Made by a program: the position numbers and the translations under genes. A stretch of DNA of 57,211 nucleotides from Persephonella sp. (GTDB lineage: Bacteria; Aquificota; Aquificia; Aquificales; Hydrogenothermaceae), in assembly GCF_027023985.1 (NCBI RefSeq), contig NZ_JALVTW010000004.1, positions 1 to 57,211 on the forward strand, written 5' to 3'. Positions 1 to 15,302 of the stretch are shown here, one piece after another. The notes below the pieces were generated by a model that did no database searches, was not told the DNA's origin, and was given only the letters and a program-made list of their open reading frames with translations. Positions within the stretch are counted from its first letter, which is position 1, and each line of letters starts with the position of its first letter.

Positions 1-42
1 TGTTATCCTTGACGAAAGAGATACGCTGCAGATTACGGTAGG

Positions 43-150
43 TTAATGTTTTCGTTCTTCTAAATAGTCTTTCATAGTTAAAAATGCCATTGTTCCAAAG
101 ATGAATAGAGCAAAAAGCATTAGTAAGATTAATAAAATTTCTAAAATCAT
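43..150 (-). CDS. 35-aa single-pass membrane protein
   Basis: This short reading frame would encode 35 residues, starting MILEILLILL and ending EERKH. Residues 1-24 are almost entirely hydrophobic and would form one membrane span, followed by a charged tail. A strong ribosome binding site (AAAGGAG) lies 7 nt upstream, inside the 3' end of the preceding gene, and the start follows that gene's stop by 1 nt. It is the last of six tightly packed small genes on this strand. I do not recognise the family. The perfect Shine-Dalgarno spacing and tight packing are the main reasons to believe it is translated. Confidence 0.5.
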   Translation of the reverse strand: MILEILLILLMLFALFIFGTMAFLTMKDYLEERKH

Positions 151-151
151 T

Positions 152-424
152 TTACAACTCCTTTAATTTCTTTCTTATTGTTAACCATAACCAAAAAGCA
201 AAAACTAACACAAAACCATCTATAAAAATTAAAGCTCCGTAGATGTAAGGGTCTAATTTATTTCCTATAATTTTTGGGTTTAAAGCTCCTATTCCTGCTG
301 ATACTGTTAAAACAATAATAACTAATGTTCTAAATAGACCTTCCTTTATTTTCAGCTTCTCAAGTTCTATTTTTGCTTTCTCTATCTCTAACTTCTTAAG
401 TTCAAGTTCTTTTTCTTTAGCCAT
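152..424 (-). CDS. 90-aa protein: charged coiled coil plus two membrane spans
   Basis: Residues 2-28 are a run of alternating Lys, Glu and Leu, typical of an amphipathic coiled coil. Two hydrophobic segments follow, about residues 31-48 and 60-82, with a basic C-terminus, so both ends are probably cytoplasmic. There is no clear Shine-Dalgarno. The start lies 5 nt after the stop of the DUF2283 gene, so it is probably translated by coupling. The function is unknown. It belongs to a leftward operon of very small proteins, most of them predicted to sit in the membrane. Confidence 0.6.
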   Translation of the reverse strand: MAKEKELELKKLEIEKAKIELEKLKIKEGLFRTLVIIVLTVSAGIGALNPKIIGNKLDPYIYGALIFIDGFVLVFAFWLWLTIRKKLKEL

Positions 425-429
425 TTTTG

Positions 430-627
430 TTAAACGGTTTGCAATAACTGCTCTATGTTTTCTTTTTTTACTTCTTTGCTTGCATTTAATATCTCTATTC
501 CTACAGGTTTATCATCTTCAGAATAATCCACGATAATGTTAGGTGTTATTTCTTCTGTATATACAATTTCCTTATCTGTTAGCTTTATATATAAAGCATT
601 TGCTTCTTTATCAAATTTTATTTCCAT
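430..627 (-). CDS. DUF2283 family protein
   Basis: The 65-residue product starts MEIKFDKEANALYIKL and continues with an EEITPNIIVDYSEDDKPVGIEIL segment in two parts; this is the conserved layout of the DUF2283 family, small beta-rich proteins of unknown function. A longer frame exists upstream to 687, but I chose the ATG at 627 because the family begins there and an AAGG box precedes it by 6 nt. It overlaps the end of the upstream 39-aa frame by 17 nt. DUF2283 genes are often found next to toxin-antitoxin or phage genes, which fits the ribbon-helix-helix and antirepressor neighbours; that link is inference. Confidence 0.75.
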   Translation of the reverse strand: MEIKFDKEANALYIKLTDKEIVYTEEITPNIIVDYSEDDKPVGIEILNASKEVKKENIEQLLQTV

Positions 628-730
628 AGTTTGCCTTCTCATCTTTGCCAAATAAAACATACACAATACCAGAAGCAATAAGGACAAATCCCAAAACTAT
701 AAAAATAGCTAATTCACTACTTATCTCCAT
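611..730 (-). CDS. 39-aa single-pass membrane protein
   Basis: The frame reads MEISSELAIFIVLGFVLIAS and ends KANYGNKI. About residues 7-27 form one hydrophobic span with a positively charged C-terminal tail. GGAG lies 6 nt before the ATG, and the start codon sits inside the last codons of the upstream 68-aa gene (14 nt overlap). Its own end overlaps the DUF2283 start. The chained overlaps suggest translational coupling through the whole small operon. There is no recognised family. Confidence 0.5.
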   Translation of the reverse strand: MEISSELAIFIVLGFVLIASGIVYVLFGKDEKANYGNKI

Positions 731-923
731 TGCTTTCTCCTTTACTTATAAAAAACATTCCAAGCACTACAATTAATATATAAACAATTCCAAAAGCAAT
801 CAATTTTAAAAAGTTTACTTTATCACTAATAACAGGTTGCAAGAATGCAAACACAAGAATAGCAACACTAAAATTTAACAGGCTTTTCCCAAATTCTTTA
901 AGAGCTTCTGGATGAGCTTTCAC
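717..923 (-). CDS. 68-aa protein with two membrane spans
   Basis: The product has a short polar N-terminus, then two hydrophobic stretches (about residues 17-33 and 39-59) and a hydrophilic tail ending SNGDK. The start is GTG, 26 nt inside the end of the ribbon-helix-helix gene, with only a weak upstream purine stretch, so it probably depends on coupling. I do not recognise the family. It resembles in size and layout the holin-like or small inner-membrane proteins found in mobile modules, but nothing in the sequence proves such a role. Confidence 0.55.
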   Translation of the reverse strand: MKAHPEALKEFGKSLLNFSVAILVFAFLQPVISDKVNFLKLIAFGIVYILIVVLGMFFISKGESNGDK

Positions 924-1077
924 TCTTATACTTCTCCAACAACAACTTTATCGCTTCTTCTAAGAGCTCGTTATTTTTCCTTCCTTGCTTGACTGCCAAC
1001 ACTTTTAATTCTTTTAGTAATTCCTCGTTTAATGATGTAGTAAATTTTACCCTTTTAGTTTCGGAAATATTGGTCAT
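898..1077 (-). CDS. ribbon-helix-helix DNA-binding protein
   Basis: The 59-residue protein has the pattern of a CopG/Arc-type ribbon-helix-helix repressor: a short strand (KRVKFTTSL), then helix A (NEELLKELKVLAVKQG), a turn (RKNN) and helix B (ELLEEAIKLLLEKY). The start was set at the ATG at 1077, not at the longer frame from 1128, because AAGGAGG lies 8 nt upstream and the fold begins here. It is the first gene of the leftward operon and lies directly beside repeated TACGTA boxes, which are candidate operators for it. Its role as an autorepressor is inferred from position. Confidence 0.75.
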   Translation of the reverse strand: MTNISETKRVKFTTSLNEELLKELKVLAVKQGRKNNELLEEAIKLLLEKYKSESSSRSS

Positions 1078-1099
1078 TACAATTTCCTCCTTGTTTTTA

Positions 1100-1128
1100 A
1101 TTATACGTAAACAAGTAAATATTGACAA
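1100..1128 (-). promoter_or_regulatory. sigma70-type promoter of the leftward micro-operon
   Basis: On the - strand TTGTCA (1123-1128) is followed after exactly 17 nt by a consensus TATAAT (1100-1105). The transcript would start just before the ribbon-helix-helix gene. The -35 box overlaps the -35 of the opposite promoter, so the two probably compete for polymerase. Confidence 0.65.
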
Positions 1129-1180
1129 GTTAAATTTTTTCTATATAATCATACGTATATACGTAATACGTAATTACGTA
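1104..1180. promoter_or_regulatory. array of TACGTA boxes, candidate operators
   Basis: The self-complementary hexamer TACGTA occurs at 1104-1109, 1152-1157, 1160-1165, 1167-1172 and 1175-1180. The first overlaps the -10 of the leftward promoter; the other four, spaced 7-8 nt apart, lie just downstream of the rightward -10. Spacing of less than one helical turn between short palindromic boxes resembles operators bound cooperatively by ribbon-helix-helix proteins. Binding by the adjacent RHH protein is inference. Confidence 0.55.
1122..1149 (+). promoter_or_regulatory. sigma70-type promoter of the antirepressor-like gene
   Basis: TTGACA (1122-1127), a 16-nt spacer and TATAAT (1144-1149) make a near-consensus promoter pointing at the gene at 1205. 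An AAGGAGG ribosome binding site lies at 1191-1197. Confidence 0.75.
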
Positions 1181-1204
1181 AAAAATTTATAAGGAGGTAT
1201 TGTT

Positions 1205-1840
1205 ATGGCAACAAAAATGGTAGAACAGGCTTTAATCCCTGTTGAAGACGCAAAAATTTTGTCTATTTGTGATGAGGAAGGGGAAGTGTGGGCAGCAGTT
1301 CGTCATATTTCTAATTACTTTGGATTGAATTGGGGAAGCCAATGGAGAAAGTTGAAATTTCTTGAACAGAAAGGCGTCGCCTTAAAGGCGATGGAGGTAG
1401 AGGTTGATGGCAACAAGGTAAAGATGATATTCATCAACCTCTACGACCTACCAGTCTATTTATATTCTATCAACATTAACAAAGTCCGTCCAGAACTCCG
1501 AGATAAGATTAAAAAATTCCAAGTAGAAACCACCCACGCCATAAGAGAATACTGGAAAAACAAGATTAAAAAGGAAAGAGAAGAAATAGAAAAACTCAAA
1601 GCCGAATACAACCAGCTTGTGCAAGAACTCCGTCAAATCCCTACTTACGAAGAATACAAGGAACTCAAGATAAAATACGAATTACTATCAACAATGGTGG
1701 ACATGCTTGTAATGGACATGGAGAATGCGAAGCCGTATGTTGACAATCTCTTTGGCAGAATAAAGAAGATAAAAGAAGGGGTCACCATCCTAACCAACGA
1801 AGGCGACCAGTTAGTTAAAAAAATCGTTCAATTTAAATAA
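1205..1840 (+). CDS. phage antirepressor-like protein (P22_AR_N-type N-terminal domain)
   Basis: The N-terminal ~110 residues match the pattern of the phage P22 antirepressor N-terminal domain: a LIPVEDAKILSICD opening, VWAAVRHISNYFGLNW, QWRKLK, a central NLYDLPVYLYSIN, then VRPELRDKIKKFQ and an HAIREYW ending. In phages such proteins act against repressors or carry BRO/Ant-type DNA-binding functions. From about residue 118 to 160 the sequence is a charged coiled coil, followed by a helical C-terminus. An AAGGAGG box 7 nt upstream fixes the start, and a terminator follows directly. It is the only rightward gene of the left-edge module; no integrase or structural phage gene is visible. Confidence 0.75.
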   Translation: MATKMVEQALIPVEDAKILSICDEEGEVWAAVRHISNYFGLNWGSQWRKLKFLEQKGVALKAMEVEVDGNKVKMIFINLYDLPVYLYSININKVRPELRDKIKKFQVETTHAIREYWKNKIKKEREEIEKLKAEYNQLVQELRQIPTYEEYKELKIKYELLSTMVDMLVMDMENAKPYVDNLFGRIKKIKEGVTILTNEGDQLVKKIVQFK

Positions 1841-1844
1841 CTCC

Positions 1845-1868
1845 AGAGGGGCTAATGCCCCTCTTTTT
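1845..1868 (+). terminator. intrinsic terminator of the antirepressor-like gene
   Basis: AGAGGGGC (1845-1852), loop TAAT and GCCCCTCT (1857-1864) form a perfect 8-bp stem followed by a run of T, only 4 nt after the stop codon. Confidence 0.9.
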
Positions 1869-2046
1869 CTGGGTGAAAACTGGGTGCAAAATTAGAGATT
1901 CACTACAACTGCATATTTCTTAATGATATTCTCAAGCTCCACCAAAAGAAAAAATCACCAGATTCTCAAAGATCAATATTTTCCTGTAAATAAATTCTTC
2001 ATACTTCCGATAAATTAATAAAACTGCTTCAAAAGGGGATTTTAGA

Positions 2047-2832
2047 ATGCCTGTAGATACTATTATTTTTTATCAAAAAGAAAAAGTGAATTTTAATAAT
2101 TTACAGATTGTCAAAAATATTGCCTCCAAATTACAAAAAAAGCTGATCCTTCTATTTGTAGATATTCCACAAGAGGAAAAAGAAAAAGCTATTTCCCTAA
2201 TTTCTTCAAATGGAATTAACTTTGAGGTAAAAAACCAGATAGAAGAAGCTCTTATAAAAGAAGAAATTAACAAGGAAAAACCAGACTTACTTATATTAAC
2301 CCGCGAGAAAATATCTCCACTTGAACATATTTTTAAAACCCCTGAAACAGAAAAATTCATAAACTCTATAAAAAATATAGATATCCTTTTGCTTCAGGAA
2401 GACGCTATCAAATTAGAGAAAATTTTGATCAATATAGACAAAGAAACTTCAACACCATTTTATATAAAATCCACATATGAATTTGCAAAAAAACTTGAAG
2501 TTCAGTTTGATTTTGTTACCTCTTTTTATGAAGCTTACTATGAACTATCATTAATGAAAACTCATCCAGAAGAAGAAGCAAAACAAATAGTAGTAGATTT
2601 ATTCAAAGAACATATAGAAATTGTAAAAGATAAAATGGCTAGAGCCTTAGGCAAAGAAAAAGCAGAAGTAATTGTAATAAAAGGAGACCCTAAAAAAGAA
2701 GTGCCTTACTATGCAAGAAGAAAAGAATACGACCTGCTCGTTATTAATGAGAATATCGAAGATAAAGATTCTTACATAGAAAACTCAGAAATGTCTGTTG
2801 GAATATTCAAAGACCAAGAAGAAGGAGAGTAA
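2047..2832 (+). CDS. universal stress protein, two-domain (UspA-like)
   Basis: The 261-residue soluble protein has the layout of a tandem Usp: an N-terminal half (about 1-117) with the strand pattern TIIFYQ / KLILLFVDI / PDLLILTR, and a C-terminal half (about 120-250) with KILINID, QFDFVTSFYEA, AEVIVIKGDPKKEV and YDLLVINE. The GDP-containing stretch before the last strands is typical of the family. A full ATP-binding GxxGx9GS loop is not seen, so nucleotide binding is doubtful. AAAGGGG precedes the start. The stop lies 2 nt before the GTG of the Na+/H+ antiporter, so the two are co-translated; a role sensing or modulating ion stress is inferred. Confidence 0.7.
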   Translation: MPVDTIIFYQKEKVNFNNLQIVKNIASKLQKKLILLFVDIPQEEKEKAISLISSNGINFEVKNQIEEALIKEEINKEKPDLLILTREKISPLEHIFKTPETEKFINSIKNIDILLLQEDAIKLEKILINIDKETSTPFYIKSTYEFAKKLEVQFDFVTSFYEAYYELSLMKTHPEEEAKQIVVDLFKEHIEIVKDKMARALGKEKAEVIVIKGDPKKEVPYYARRKEYDLLVINENIEDKDSYIENSEMSVGIFKDQEEGE

Positions 2833-2834
2833 AG

Positions 2835-4175
2835 GTGGAGCATCATACAACAACTATTCTGGGAATGTTAGGTTTAGGGTCTAAAGAAACTCTTTACTGG
2901 ATATCTATTCTGCTTTTTGTTGGCACTTATGCAATGATTATTCTTGAAAAGTTTTTCCACAGAGTTCCAGCAGCACTTCTGGGAGGAACTCTGGCTATAT
3001 TCTTGGGAGTAGTTACTCCCAAGTCAGCATGGGAATCAATTGACCACAACACAATGTTCCTTCTGATTGGAATGATGATAATTGTTTCTGTGCTTATTGA
3101 AAGTGGATTTTTCTCAATATTATCCTCCGTAGCTTTACGAATAACCAAAGGAGATCCTCTAAAGATTATCCTTACTTTTACAATGCTAACTGCCGTTTTA
3201 TCTGCTTTTTTAGATAACGTAACTACCGTTTTATTCATGGTGCCTATTTTGATATCTATTACAAGAAAACTTAAATTACCTCCTGTTCCTTATATTATTG
3301 CAACGGTTCTGGCCTCAAACATAGGTGGAACGGCAACATTAATCGGTGACCCTCCTAACATCATCATCGGTTCTCTGGGACATTTTACATTTATGGATTT
3401 TATTGTAAATCTTACTCCTATTATTATCATTACCCATATAATTGGAACAATTGTTTTTATAGGTATGATGAAATTTCAAGGACATCTACAGGTAAAAGTA
3501 AAAGATAAAGAAGAACTTAAAAGAATCGTAGAAGAGCAAAAAATAGAATATGACATAAAATTAATGAGAAAAGGTTTAATTGTATTTGGGATTACGATAA
3601 TTCTATTTTTCCTCCACCATATTCTTCACCTTGAAGCAGGAACAATAGCCTTATTTATGGCCTCTGTTTTAATGCTCTGGTCTAAGGAAGACCCTGAAAA
3701 GATATTTGAAAGGGTTGAATGGACAACTTTAATGTTCTTCTTAGGTTTATTTGTTGTTATTGGAGGACTTGAACACTCTGGTGTGTTTGAAGATGCTGCA
3801 AAATTAGTTGCAGGGGTCATAACTGACCCAATGTCAGGAATCCTTGTTTTAGGTGGTTTATCTGCAATTATTTCAGGTATTGTAGATAATATACCATTTA
3901 CAATGGCTATGTCTTATGTTCTTATTGACCTTGGTAAAACAGCTGCTTTTGATACTGAACCTTTATGGTGGGCACTTGCTCTTGGTGCATGTCTTGGAGG
4001 CAACCTGACAATAATAGGTGCTTCAGCAAACGTTGTTGCAGCTGGTCTTTCGGAAAGGGAAGGTTATCCAATAAAATTCTTTGATTTTATTAAACAGGGA
4101 ACACCGGTAACAATAGTTTCCGTGATTGTTGCCCTTGGACTCCTGTGGCTCAAGTATGCTATTTTCGGCGTATAA
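2835..4175 (+). CDS. nhaD: NhaD-type Na+/H+ antiporter (ion transporter superfamily)
   Basis: This 446-residue integral membrane protein has about 11-12 hydrophobic spans in two inverted halves. Family hallmarks include FLDNVTTVLFMVPI and NIGGTATLIGDPPNIIIGS in the first half, and SGIVDNIPFTMAMSYV and CLGGNLTIIGASANVVAAG in the second half. The GDPPN and GASAN loops mark the ArsB/NhaD/CitMHS group, and the conserved Asp-Asn pairs lie in unwound membrane helices. It should exchange cytoplasmic Na+ for H+ in the inner membrane. The start is GTG with GAAGGAG 7 nt upstream, in the end of the Usp gene. It ends in a perfect terminator hairpin. An arsenite or dicarboxylate carrier is less likely given the motif set. 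Confidence 0.85.
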   Translation: MEHHTTTILGMLGLGSKETLYWISILLFVGTYAMIILEKFFHRVPAALLGGTLAIFLGVVTPKSAWESIDHNTMFLLIGMMIIVSVLIESGFFSILSSVALRITKGDPLKIILTFTMLTAVLSAFLDNVTTVLFMVPILISITRKLKLPPVPYIIATVLASNIGGTATLIGDPPNIIIGSLGHFTFMDFIVNLTPIIIITHIIGTIVFIGMMKFQGHLQVKVKDKEELKRIVEEQKIEYDIKLMRKGLIVFGITIILFFLHHILHLEAGTIALFMASVLMLWSKEDPEKIFERVEWTTLMFFLGLFVVIGGLEHSGVFEDAAKLVAGVITDPMSGILVLGGLSAIISGIVDNIPFTMAMSYVLIDLGKTAAFDTEPLWWALALGACLGGNLTIIGASANVVAAGLSEREGYPIKFFDFIKQGTPVTIVSVIVALGLLWLKYAIFGV

Positions 4176-14336: not shown

Positions 14337-15302
14337 ATGTCTGATGAGTTCCTGTCTCAAGAAGAGATAGATGCTTTATTAGGTGGTGGTTCGGAAGAGA
14401 AAGAAGAAGAAAAGCCCAAAGAAGATATAGCCCCTTTTGATTTTTCAGAAGTAGAGCATATCAAGAAAGGCGGACTTCCCGGATTTGAACTAATTTTTGA
14501 AAGATGGATAAAACTGTTCAGGGAAGAAGTCAGAAAAATCATGCCCCATATAAATATGATAACCAAAGAAAATATCTATATATCAAGGTTTCAAAATTTC
14601 ATGCTTAAAATTCCCCTTCCTTCCAGTTATACAATATTTTCAATGAGACCCCTTAAAGAAAACGCACTGCTTGTTGTTGATTCAAGACTTGTTTTTACAG
14701 TAATAAGCGTTTTGTTCGGAGGTCCTGCCAAACCATTCAAAGTAGAAGGTAGAGAATTTACAAAACTTGAACTTAGAGTAATACAGGATTTTATAAGCAC
14801 AGCTTTAAAAACATTTGAACAGGTCTGGGATGAATTTTATCCGGTTATGGTTGAAATTAAATCAATAGAACTTAATCCAAGTCTTGCCAGAATAGTCTCT
14901 CCAAATGAGAAAGTAATCATTGTTGAGTGCAAAATGGATATTGATGGATATGAAGCACCGTTTTATTTCTGTTTTCCACAAAGTATGTTTCTTCCAATTA
15001 AGGATATAGTTTATTCACAGGTTGCTTTTTCTGAAGACCCTGTATGGAAAAAAAATATTGAAGAAAAAGTTAGAAAGATAGAACTGAAACTGACCCTTGA
15101 ACTTACAAAGATGAAATTAAAAGTTAAAGATATTCTTGAATGGGAAGAAGGCACAGAATTAAACCTATATGTATCTCCTTCTGAAGAGTTTAAGCTTTAT
15201 GTTGAGGATAAACATAAATTTAATGCAAAACTTGGAAAAATAAATGATAAATACGCTGCAATGATAACAAAACCTATTCTTGAAGAGGAAAAAAATGAGT
15301 GA
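14337..15302 (+). CDS. fliM: FliM, flagellar motor switch protein
   Basis: The 321-residue protein opens with the CheY-binding peptide FLSQEEIDALLGGG, the most diagnostic FliM motif. A CheC-like middle domain follows, containing FGGPAKPFKVEGREFTKLE, and a C-terminal SpoA domain from about residue 245. It docks CheY-P and passes the signal to FliG. AGGTG precedes the ATG. The last 8 nt overlap the fliN start. The middle domain is intact and the length is normal for the family. Confidence 0.95.
   Translation: MSDEFLSQEEIDALLGGGSEEKEEEKPKEDIAPFDFSEVEHIKKGGLPGFELIFERWIKLFREEVRKIMPHINMITKENIYISRFQNFMLKIPLPSSYTIFSMRPLKENALLVVDSRLVFTVISVLFGGPAKPFKVEGREFTKLELRVIQDFISTALKTFEQVWDEFYPVMVEIKSIELNPSLARIVSPNEKVIIVECKMDIDGYEAPFYFCFPQSMFLPIKDIVYSQVAFSEDPVWKKNIEEKVRKIELKLTLELTKMKLKVKDILEWEEGTELNLYVSPSEEFKLYVEDKHKFNAKLGKINDKYAAMITKPILEEEKNE

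What the first reader, a model, noticed from the sequence alone, without database searches (positions are those of the whole stretch)
1100..1180. Divergent promoters with overlapping -35 boxes and five TACGTA operators
The leftward (TTGTCA-17-TATAAT) and rightward (TTGACA-16-TATAAT) promoters share 5 nt of -35 sequence and so exclude each other. One TACGTA overlaps the leftward -10 and four, spaced 7-8 nt, lie at the rightward start. With an RHH repressor on one side and an antirepressor-type protein on the other, this has the form of a two-state switch.
Basis: partly seen in the sequence, partly recalled or inferred. Interest (0 to 1): 0.62.

Follow-up and report, generated by a model that had tools for sequence, protein, structure and literature searches.

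The report
Prophage antirepressor promoter with operator array
At the edge of a prophage in a heat-loving (Aquificota) bacterium, a tiny repressor gene and an antirepressor gene fire in opposite directions from promoters that share one -35 box, and relatives keep this layout to the base while swapping the repeated binding word together with the repressor's DNA-reading strand, so the array is very probably the repressor's own operator.

Summary
A 12/12 rightward promoter and an 11/12 leftward promoter share 5 nt of -35, with TACGTA at 1104, 1152, 1160, 1167 and 1175. This is the only such array in the 1.9-Mb genome.

The leftward gene is a 59-aa ribbon-helix-helix (RHH) protein. The rightward gene carries the P22 antirepressor domain (P22_AR_N, E=2e-27). 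Two related modules, in another Hydrogenothermaceae prophage and in an IMG/VR phage contig, keep the promoter geometry and array register almost base for base but carry other operator words: TCTTGA and GTTAAC. A third relative has a closely related RHH, the same GTTAAC word and a different divergent gene. Operator and RHH recognition strand therefore change together, which is good comparative evidence that the RHH binds the array.

Best reading: a reduced form of the P22 immI region. One autoregulated RHH repressor silences an antirepressor that probably acts on the phage's main repressor.

"Two-state switch" is not shown. The antirepressor has no predicted action on the RHH gene, and the shared -35 also occurs in a housekeeping transglycosylase/tRNA-Met promoter pair, so it is not in itself a switch signature. 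New variant of a known kind; moderate interest; no binding or expression data.

The parts
901..1077 (-). RHH repressor gene, 59 aa, recognition strand VKFTTSL
   Evidence: Pfam RHH_3 4e-8 over cut-off; phrog_3180 Arc-like repressor 1.7e-11; only family member in the genome
1100..1105 (-). -10 of the leftward (RHH) promoter, TATAAT
   Evidence: at the same -22 offset from TTGACA in three relatives, L005, L006 and L154
1104..1109 (.). single operator TACGTA at the RHH promoter (predicted autoregulation)
   Evidence: relatives carry their own word at -14 (L006, L154) or -10 (L005)
1122..1128 (.). shared -35 heptamer TTGACAA: TTGACA rightward, TTGTCA leftward
   Evidence: identical in L005, L006 and L154
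1144..1149 (+). -10 of the rightward (antirepressor) promoter, TATAAT
1152..1180 (.). four-copy TACGTA operator array over the predicted antirepressor start site
   Evidence: unique in genome
1205..1840 (+). antirepressor gene, 211 aa, P22_AR_N domain plus a long helical C-terminal half
   Evidence: PF10547 2e-27; phrog_524 anti-repressor Ant 5e-21; 31% identical to P22 Ant over residues 6-117; helices 96-143 and 148-191 in a moderate model
1845..1864 (+). intrinsic terminator after the antirepressor gene
155..923 (-). genes downstream of the RHH gene on the same strand: small membrane proteins and a DUF2283 protein, probably co-transcribed with it
   Evidence: ORFs; DUF2283 2e-19; part of the set also lies downstream of the RHH in the G034 prophage

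Best explanation
This is a reduced P22-immI-type control region at the end of a prophage. The leftward promoter makes a small RHH repressor (and probably the small membrane proteins behind it). RHH dimers fill the four-site array over the antirepressor start site, one dimer per 7-8 bp, and shut off the antirepressor promoter. A single site at the RHH promoter limits the RHH's own synthesis. RNA polymerase can use only one promoter at a time because the -35 is shared. After infection, or whenever RHH falls, the consensus antirepressor promoter would fire until RHH builds up and closes it. The antirepressor would meanwhile inactivate the phage's main lysogeny repressor. Shown: anatomy, gene families, conserved geometry, co-variation of operator word with RHH strand. 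Inferred: binding, repression, autoregulation, the pulse, and the antirepressor's target.
For: Promoters and array confirmed and non-random. The module recurs in G034 (L005/L007) and in IMG/VR contig L006 with TTGACAA shared, leftward -10 at -22 in all, and arrays at +30/38/45/53 (window), +30/38/46 (L006) and +31/39/47 (L005). The word differs (TACGTA, GTTAAC/GTTAAA, TCTTGA/TCAAGA), and each locus has essentially only its own word. Register test against shuffles: p = 0.002, 0.001, <0.0001. RHH recognition strands differ likewise: VKFTTSL, IVFGVRV, VKYATSL. A third relative (L154) with strand IFAVRID has the GTTAAC word although its divergent gene is not an antirepressor. P22 has the same plan: divergent mnt, and the Mnt operator just past the -10 of Pant. 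In G034 the module sits beyond late genes at the prophage end. RHH proteins of the omega type bind 7-bp repeats one dimer each with cooperation between neighbours (PMC9499535).
Against: No binding, footprint or transcript data. Only four clear loci, and the two GTTAAC cases have closely related RHH proteins, so they are not independent. The exact-hexamer test alone is not significant for L006 (0.21); only the register test is. The main repressor that the antirepressor would act on was not found. The window starts at a contig edge, and another contig (C2) overlaps it internally, so the left side of the prophage is uncertain.
Confidence: 0.72

Rival explanations
1. A true bistable switch: the antirepressor protein (directly or through another factor) also inhibits the RHH protein or its promoter, so each side shuts off the other.
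For: Shared -35 makes initiation mutually exclusive; antirepressors act by binding repressors, and in P22 Arc is reported to inhibit mnt expression (PMC11016777). Overlapping divergent promoters form a switch in plasmid pLS20 (PMC6540685; PMC4207663).
Against: No second DNA-binding regulator is encoded rightward (no arc equivalent); P22 Ant acts on c2; the single operator at the RHH promoter predicts autorepression; the same promoter geometry serves a housekeeping gene pair.
Confidence: 0.15
2. The array is bound by a different regulator (host factor or the phage's main repressor), and the RHH protein belongs to something else, such as an orphan antitoxin-like regulator.
For: RHH also matches Antitox_RHH just above its cut-off and RelB-like antitoxins weakly; no binding data.
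Against: Operator word and RHH recognition strand change together across loci while the neighbouring gene does not track it; no toxin-like gene was recognised next to it; no other TACGTA array in the genome.
Confidence: 0.1
3. The TACGTA copies are a chance microsatellite-like expansion without function.
For: AT-rich region; palindromic TA-containing words recur easily.
Against: Shuffle tests; a separate fifth copy 43 bp away at the other promoter; homologous positions are occupied by different repeated words in relatives.
Confidence: 0.03

Closest known systems
Phage P22 immI region (mnt / arc / ant)
   Same: RHH repressor gene divergent from an antirepressor gene with the homologous P22_AR_N domain; repressor operator just past the -10 of the ant promoter; overlapping divergent promoters; membrane-protein gene(s) behind the repressor gene (sieA in P22); region near the late genes.
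   Different: One RHH gene instead of two (no arc between promoter and ant); RHH not in Pfam Arc family and without Mnt's tetramer tail; promoters back to back sharing -35 rather than nested; four- and one-copy short-word operators instead of one 17-21 bp palindrome.
Oslo-, Midgardsormr38- and UFJF_PfDIW6-type Arc/Arc/Ant modules
   Same: Arc-family gene divergent from an antirepressor gene.
   Different: They keep a second Arc-like gene in front of ant.
RHH repressors on contiguous short repeats (omega of pSM19035)
   Same: Operator array of short words at 7-8 bp steps overlapping promoters; omega words occur direct or inverted (PMC9499535), as TCTTGA/TCAAGA does in L005.
   Different: Different family members and words; no partition role indicated.
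pLS20 Rco/Rap conjugation switch
   Same: Overlapping divergent promoters for a repressor and a repressed operon, with an anti-repressor (PMC6540685).
   Different: Rco is a tetramer that loops DNA; Rap is controlled by a peptide; no RHH array.

Membership tests
P22 immI-type region | RHH repressor gene divergent from the ant promoter | tested here: met
P22 immI-type region | Antirepressor with P22_AR_N domain | tested here: met
   PF10547 E=2.1e-27; 31% identity to P22 Ant residues 6-117
P22 immI-type region | Second RHH gene (arc) in the ant operon | tested here: not met
   The antirepressor ATG follows the promoter directly
P22 immI-type region | Repressor in Pfam Arc family with Mnt tetramer tail | tested here: not met
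   No PF03869 or PF11423 match at E<=1; P22 Mnt matches both
P22 immI-type region | Nested, nearly coincident Pmnt and Pant | tested here: not met
   P22 14793-14821 versus 14798-14826; here back to back
P22 immI-type region | sar antisense RNA | not tested
   No RNA data
P22 immI-type region | Ant inactivates the main phage repressor | not testable with these tools
   Main repressor of this prophage not identified
RHH transcription factors | RHH domain over curated cut-off | tested here: met
   RHH_3 33.5 bits against 21.6; RHH_1 21.6 against 20.5
Bistable genetic switch | Mutual repression by the two divergent products | not testable with these tools
   No repressor predicted on the rightward side acting leftward

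The most novel reading that the evidence does not exclude
RHH gene plus shared-35 promoter plus register-fixed array is a re-codable cassette: the repressor's ribbon residues and the operator word are exchanged together while promoter geometry and spacing stay fixed, and the cassette can control different cargo (antirepressor or other phage genes). This would give naturally orthogonal repressor-operator pairs and a way for related prophages to escape each other's secondary immunity.
Probability: 0.45. Interest if true: 0.58.

Novelty: new variant of a known kind. Interest (0 to 1): 0.42.

Why it matters
It carries P22-style antirepressor control to prophages of a deep-branching thermophile phylum in a one-repressor form. 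Three matched RHH/operator specificities in one fixed promoter frame are a natural test set for how an RHH ribbon chooses its DNA word, and for how prophages diversify secondary immunity.

Tried and rejected
First genome-contig scan with the single protein found nothing; the second, with A1, only re-found G034. Viral scans with RHH alignments gave only L006 and a distant Bacillus-type RHH, L024, not used. A loose promoter pattern in IMG/VR gave more than 120 hits; in the subset scanned (L024-L105) only L006 and the separately found L024 encoded the RHH, and only L006 the antirepressor, so the pattern alone is not specific. PDB sequence search found no close solved RHH. L167 (RHH between restriction and modification genes, one TACGTA inside its promoter) was judged too distant to count as a module. 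L169 is a different RHH. G114 has a P22_AR_N gene divergent from an HTH gene, not an RHH gene. No fold search of the antirepressor model was run (pTM 0.51). ABMM1 looked like a single-repressor version, but its repressor gives only a weak HTH match, not RHH. Resemblance of the K-x-T strand to MetJ was considered from memory and not tested.

Full report
Observation. The rightward promoter TTGACA(1122-1127)-16-TATAAT(1144-1149) matches 12/12, and the leftward TTGTCA(1128-1123)-17-TATAAT(1105-1100) matches 11/12. No other site in 1-3000 exceeds 9/12. They share 1123-1127. TACGTA is at 1104, 1152, 1160, 1167 and 1175. In 5000 shuffles of the 127-nt intergenic region, five copies of any hexamer were reached once and a four-copy run at 7-8 nt never. 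The genome has no second array.

Genes. Leftward: a 59-aa RHH protein, RHH_3 over its cut-off and PHROG Arc-like repressor, followed on the same strand by small membrane proteins and a DUF2283 protein. Rightward: a 211-aa protein with P22_AR_N (2e-27) and PHROG anti-repressor Ant (5e-21), then a terminator and host-type genes (universal stress protein, CitMHS-type transporter). The window is the start of contig C4 of a 38-contig genome. Relatives are Hydrogenothermaceae. Phage late genes of the same kind lie on contig C2.

Relatives. The antirepressor occurs in 3 of 136 Aquificota genomes and in one IMG/VR contig. In G034 the module ends a prophage that carries tail-type and large late proteins. 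In both close relatives (L005, L006) the RHH gene is divergent from the antirepressor gene, the -35 heptamer is TTGACAA, and the leftward -10 is ATTATA exactly 22 nt before it. The array starts at +30 or +31 with 8-nt steps and one further copy sits between the leftward -10 and the -35, but the word is GTTAAC/GTTAAA in L006 and TCTTGA/TCAAGA in L005. With the promoter held fixed, the register statistic was reached in 0.2%, 0.1% and under 0.01% of shuffles for window, L006 and L005. Cross-counting the words gives an almost block-diagonal table; the one stray is a GTTAAA in the window's promoter spacer.

Who binds. The RHH recognition strands are VKFTTSL (window), VKYATSL (L005) and IVFGVRV (L006). 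A pattern search for the promoter geometry over 136 genomes gave 10 genomes and none for the reversed control. One hit, G025 (L154), has an RHH with strand IFAVRID, close to that of L006, and also GTTAAC at the left site plus GTTAAA and GTTAAC in the array, while its divergent gene is an unrelated 85-aa protein. The operator word therefore follows the RHH, not the cargo. A decayed copy in G011 (L168) also has GTTAAC beside the RHH promoter. The two GTTAAC proteins are closely related, so this is three specificities with one repeated, not four independent cases.

What the shared -35 means. The other seven genomes with this geometry, in genera g8 and g10, have spacers resembling one another. The one read in full (L156) is the intergenic region of a lytic transglycosylase gene and a tRNA-Met gene. 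Sharing a -35 is thus an ordinary compact promoter form in this family and does not itself indicate a switch. It does make initiation mutually exclusive in principle.

Comparison with P22. P22 immI has mnt divergent from arc-ant, the Mnt operator immediately past the -10 of Pant, and an Ant with a homologous N-terminal domain. Here there is one RHH, not in Pfam's Arc family, no arc gene, back-to-back rather than nested promoters, and a short-word array. Other phages checked (Oslo, Midgardsormr38, UFJF_PfDIW6) keep two Arc-like genes. It works like immI but fails several defining features of it. Short contiguous repeats bound one dimer each are known for the RHH protein omega (PMC9499535).

Mechanism proposed. 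The array covers the predicted antirepressor start, so filling it should block that promoter. The single site at the RHH promoter should cap RHH synthesis. On entry into a fresh cell without RHH, the consensus antirepressor promoter should fire first and then be closed: a pulse. In P22, Ant binds the c2 repressor, and deletion of immI lowers lysogeny (PMC11016777); the same target class is assumed here. Anatomy and co-variation are shown; binding, regulation and target are inferred.

Limits. Few loci, no expression data. The prophage layout left of about 640 is uncertain because the last 136 nt of contig C2 match window 635-770 (99%; the last 123 nt, 648-770, exactly).

Noticed in passing
window 635-770 and L016 14019-14154: The right end of phage contig C2 is 99% identical to an internal stretch of the window (last 123 nt exact), so one RHH/antirepressor module has two different left contexts: two related prophages collapsed in assembly, or population variation.
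   Followed up: partly
window 1866-1891; L006 8628-8653: A 26-nt sequence TTTCTGGGTGAAAACTGGGTGCAAAA after the antirepressor terminator is identical in the window and in L006 but not found in L005; possibly part of an attachment or end site.
   Followed up: partly
window 155-424; L022 1894-2148; L023 899-1171: The 90-aa coiled-coil/membrane protein has relatives elsewhere in the host genome, one next to tRNA-Arg(CCT), the same tRNA that borders the L006 phage contig.
   Followed up: partly
L154 1574-2413; L168 1497-2244: In G025 the same RHH cassette precedes a 146-aa and an 89-aa gene without family matches (possibly toxin-antitoxin-like); a degraded copy with stop codons is in G011.
   Followed up: partly
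L167 471-2867: A related RHH gene lies between a type II restriction gene and a methyltransferase gene, with TTACGTAA inside the methyltransferase promoter: possibly an RHH controller of a restriction system.
   Followed up: no
L156 1380-1700 (and L157-L162): Lytic transglycosylase and tRNA-Met genes are divergently transcribed from promoters sharing TTGACAA; matches with similar spacers occur in seven Hydrogenothermaceae genomes, one of which was read in full.
   Followed up: partly
L017 1305-2255 (G114): A P22_AR_N gene divergent from a helix-turn-helix gene, again with TTGACAAG and repeated GTTTAC words in the promoter region.
   Followed up: no
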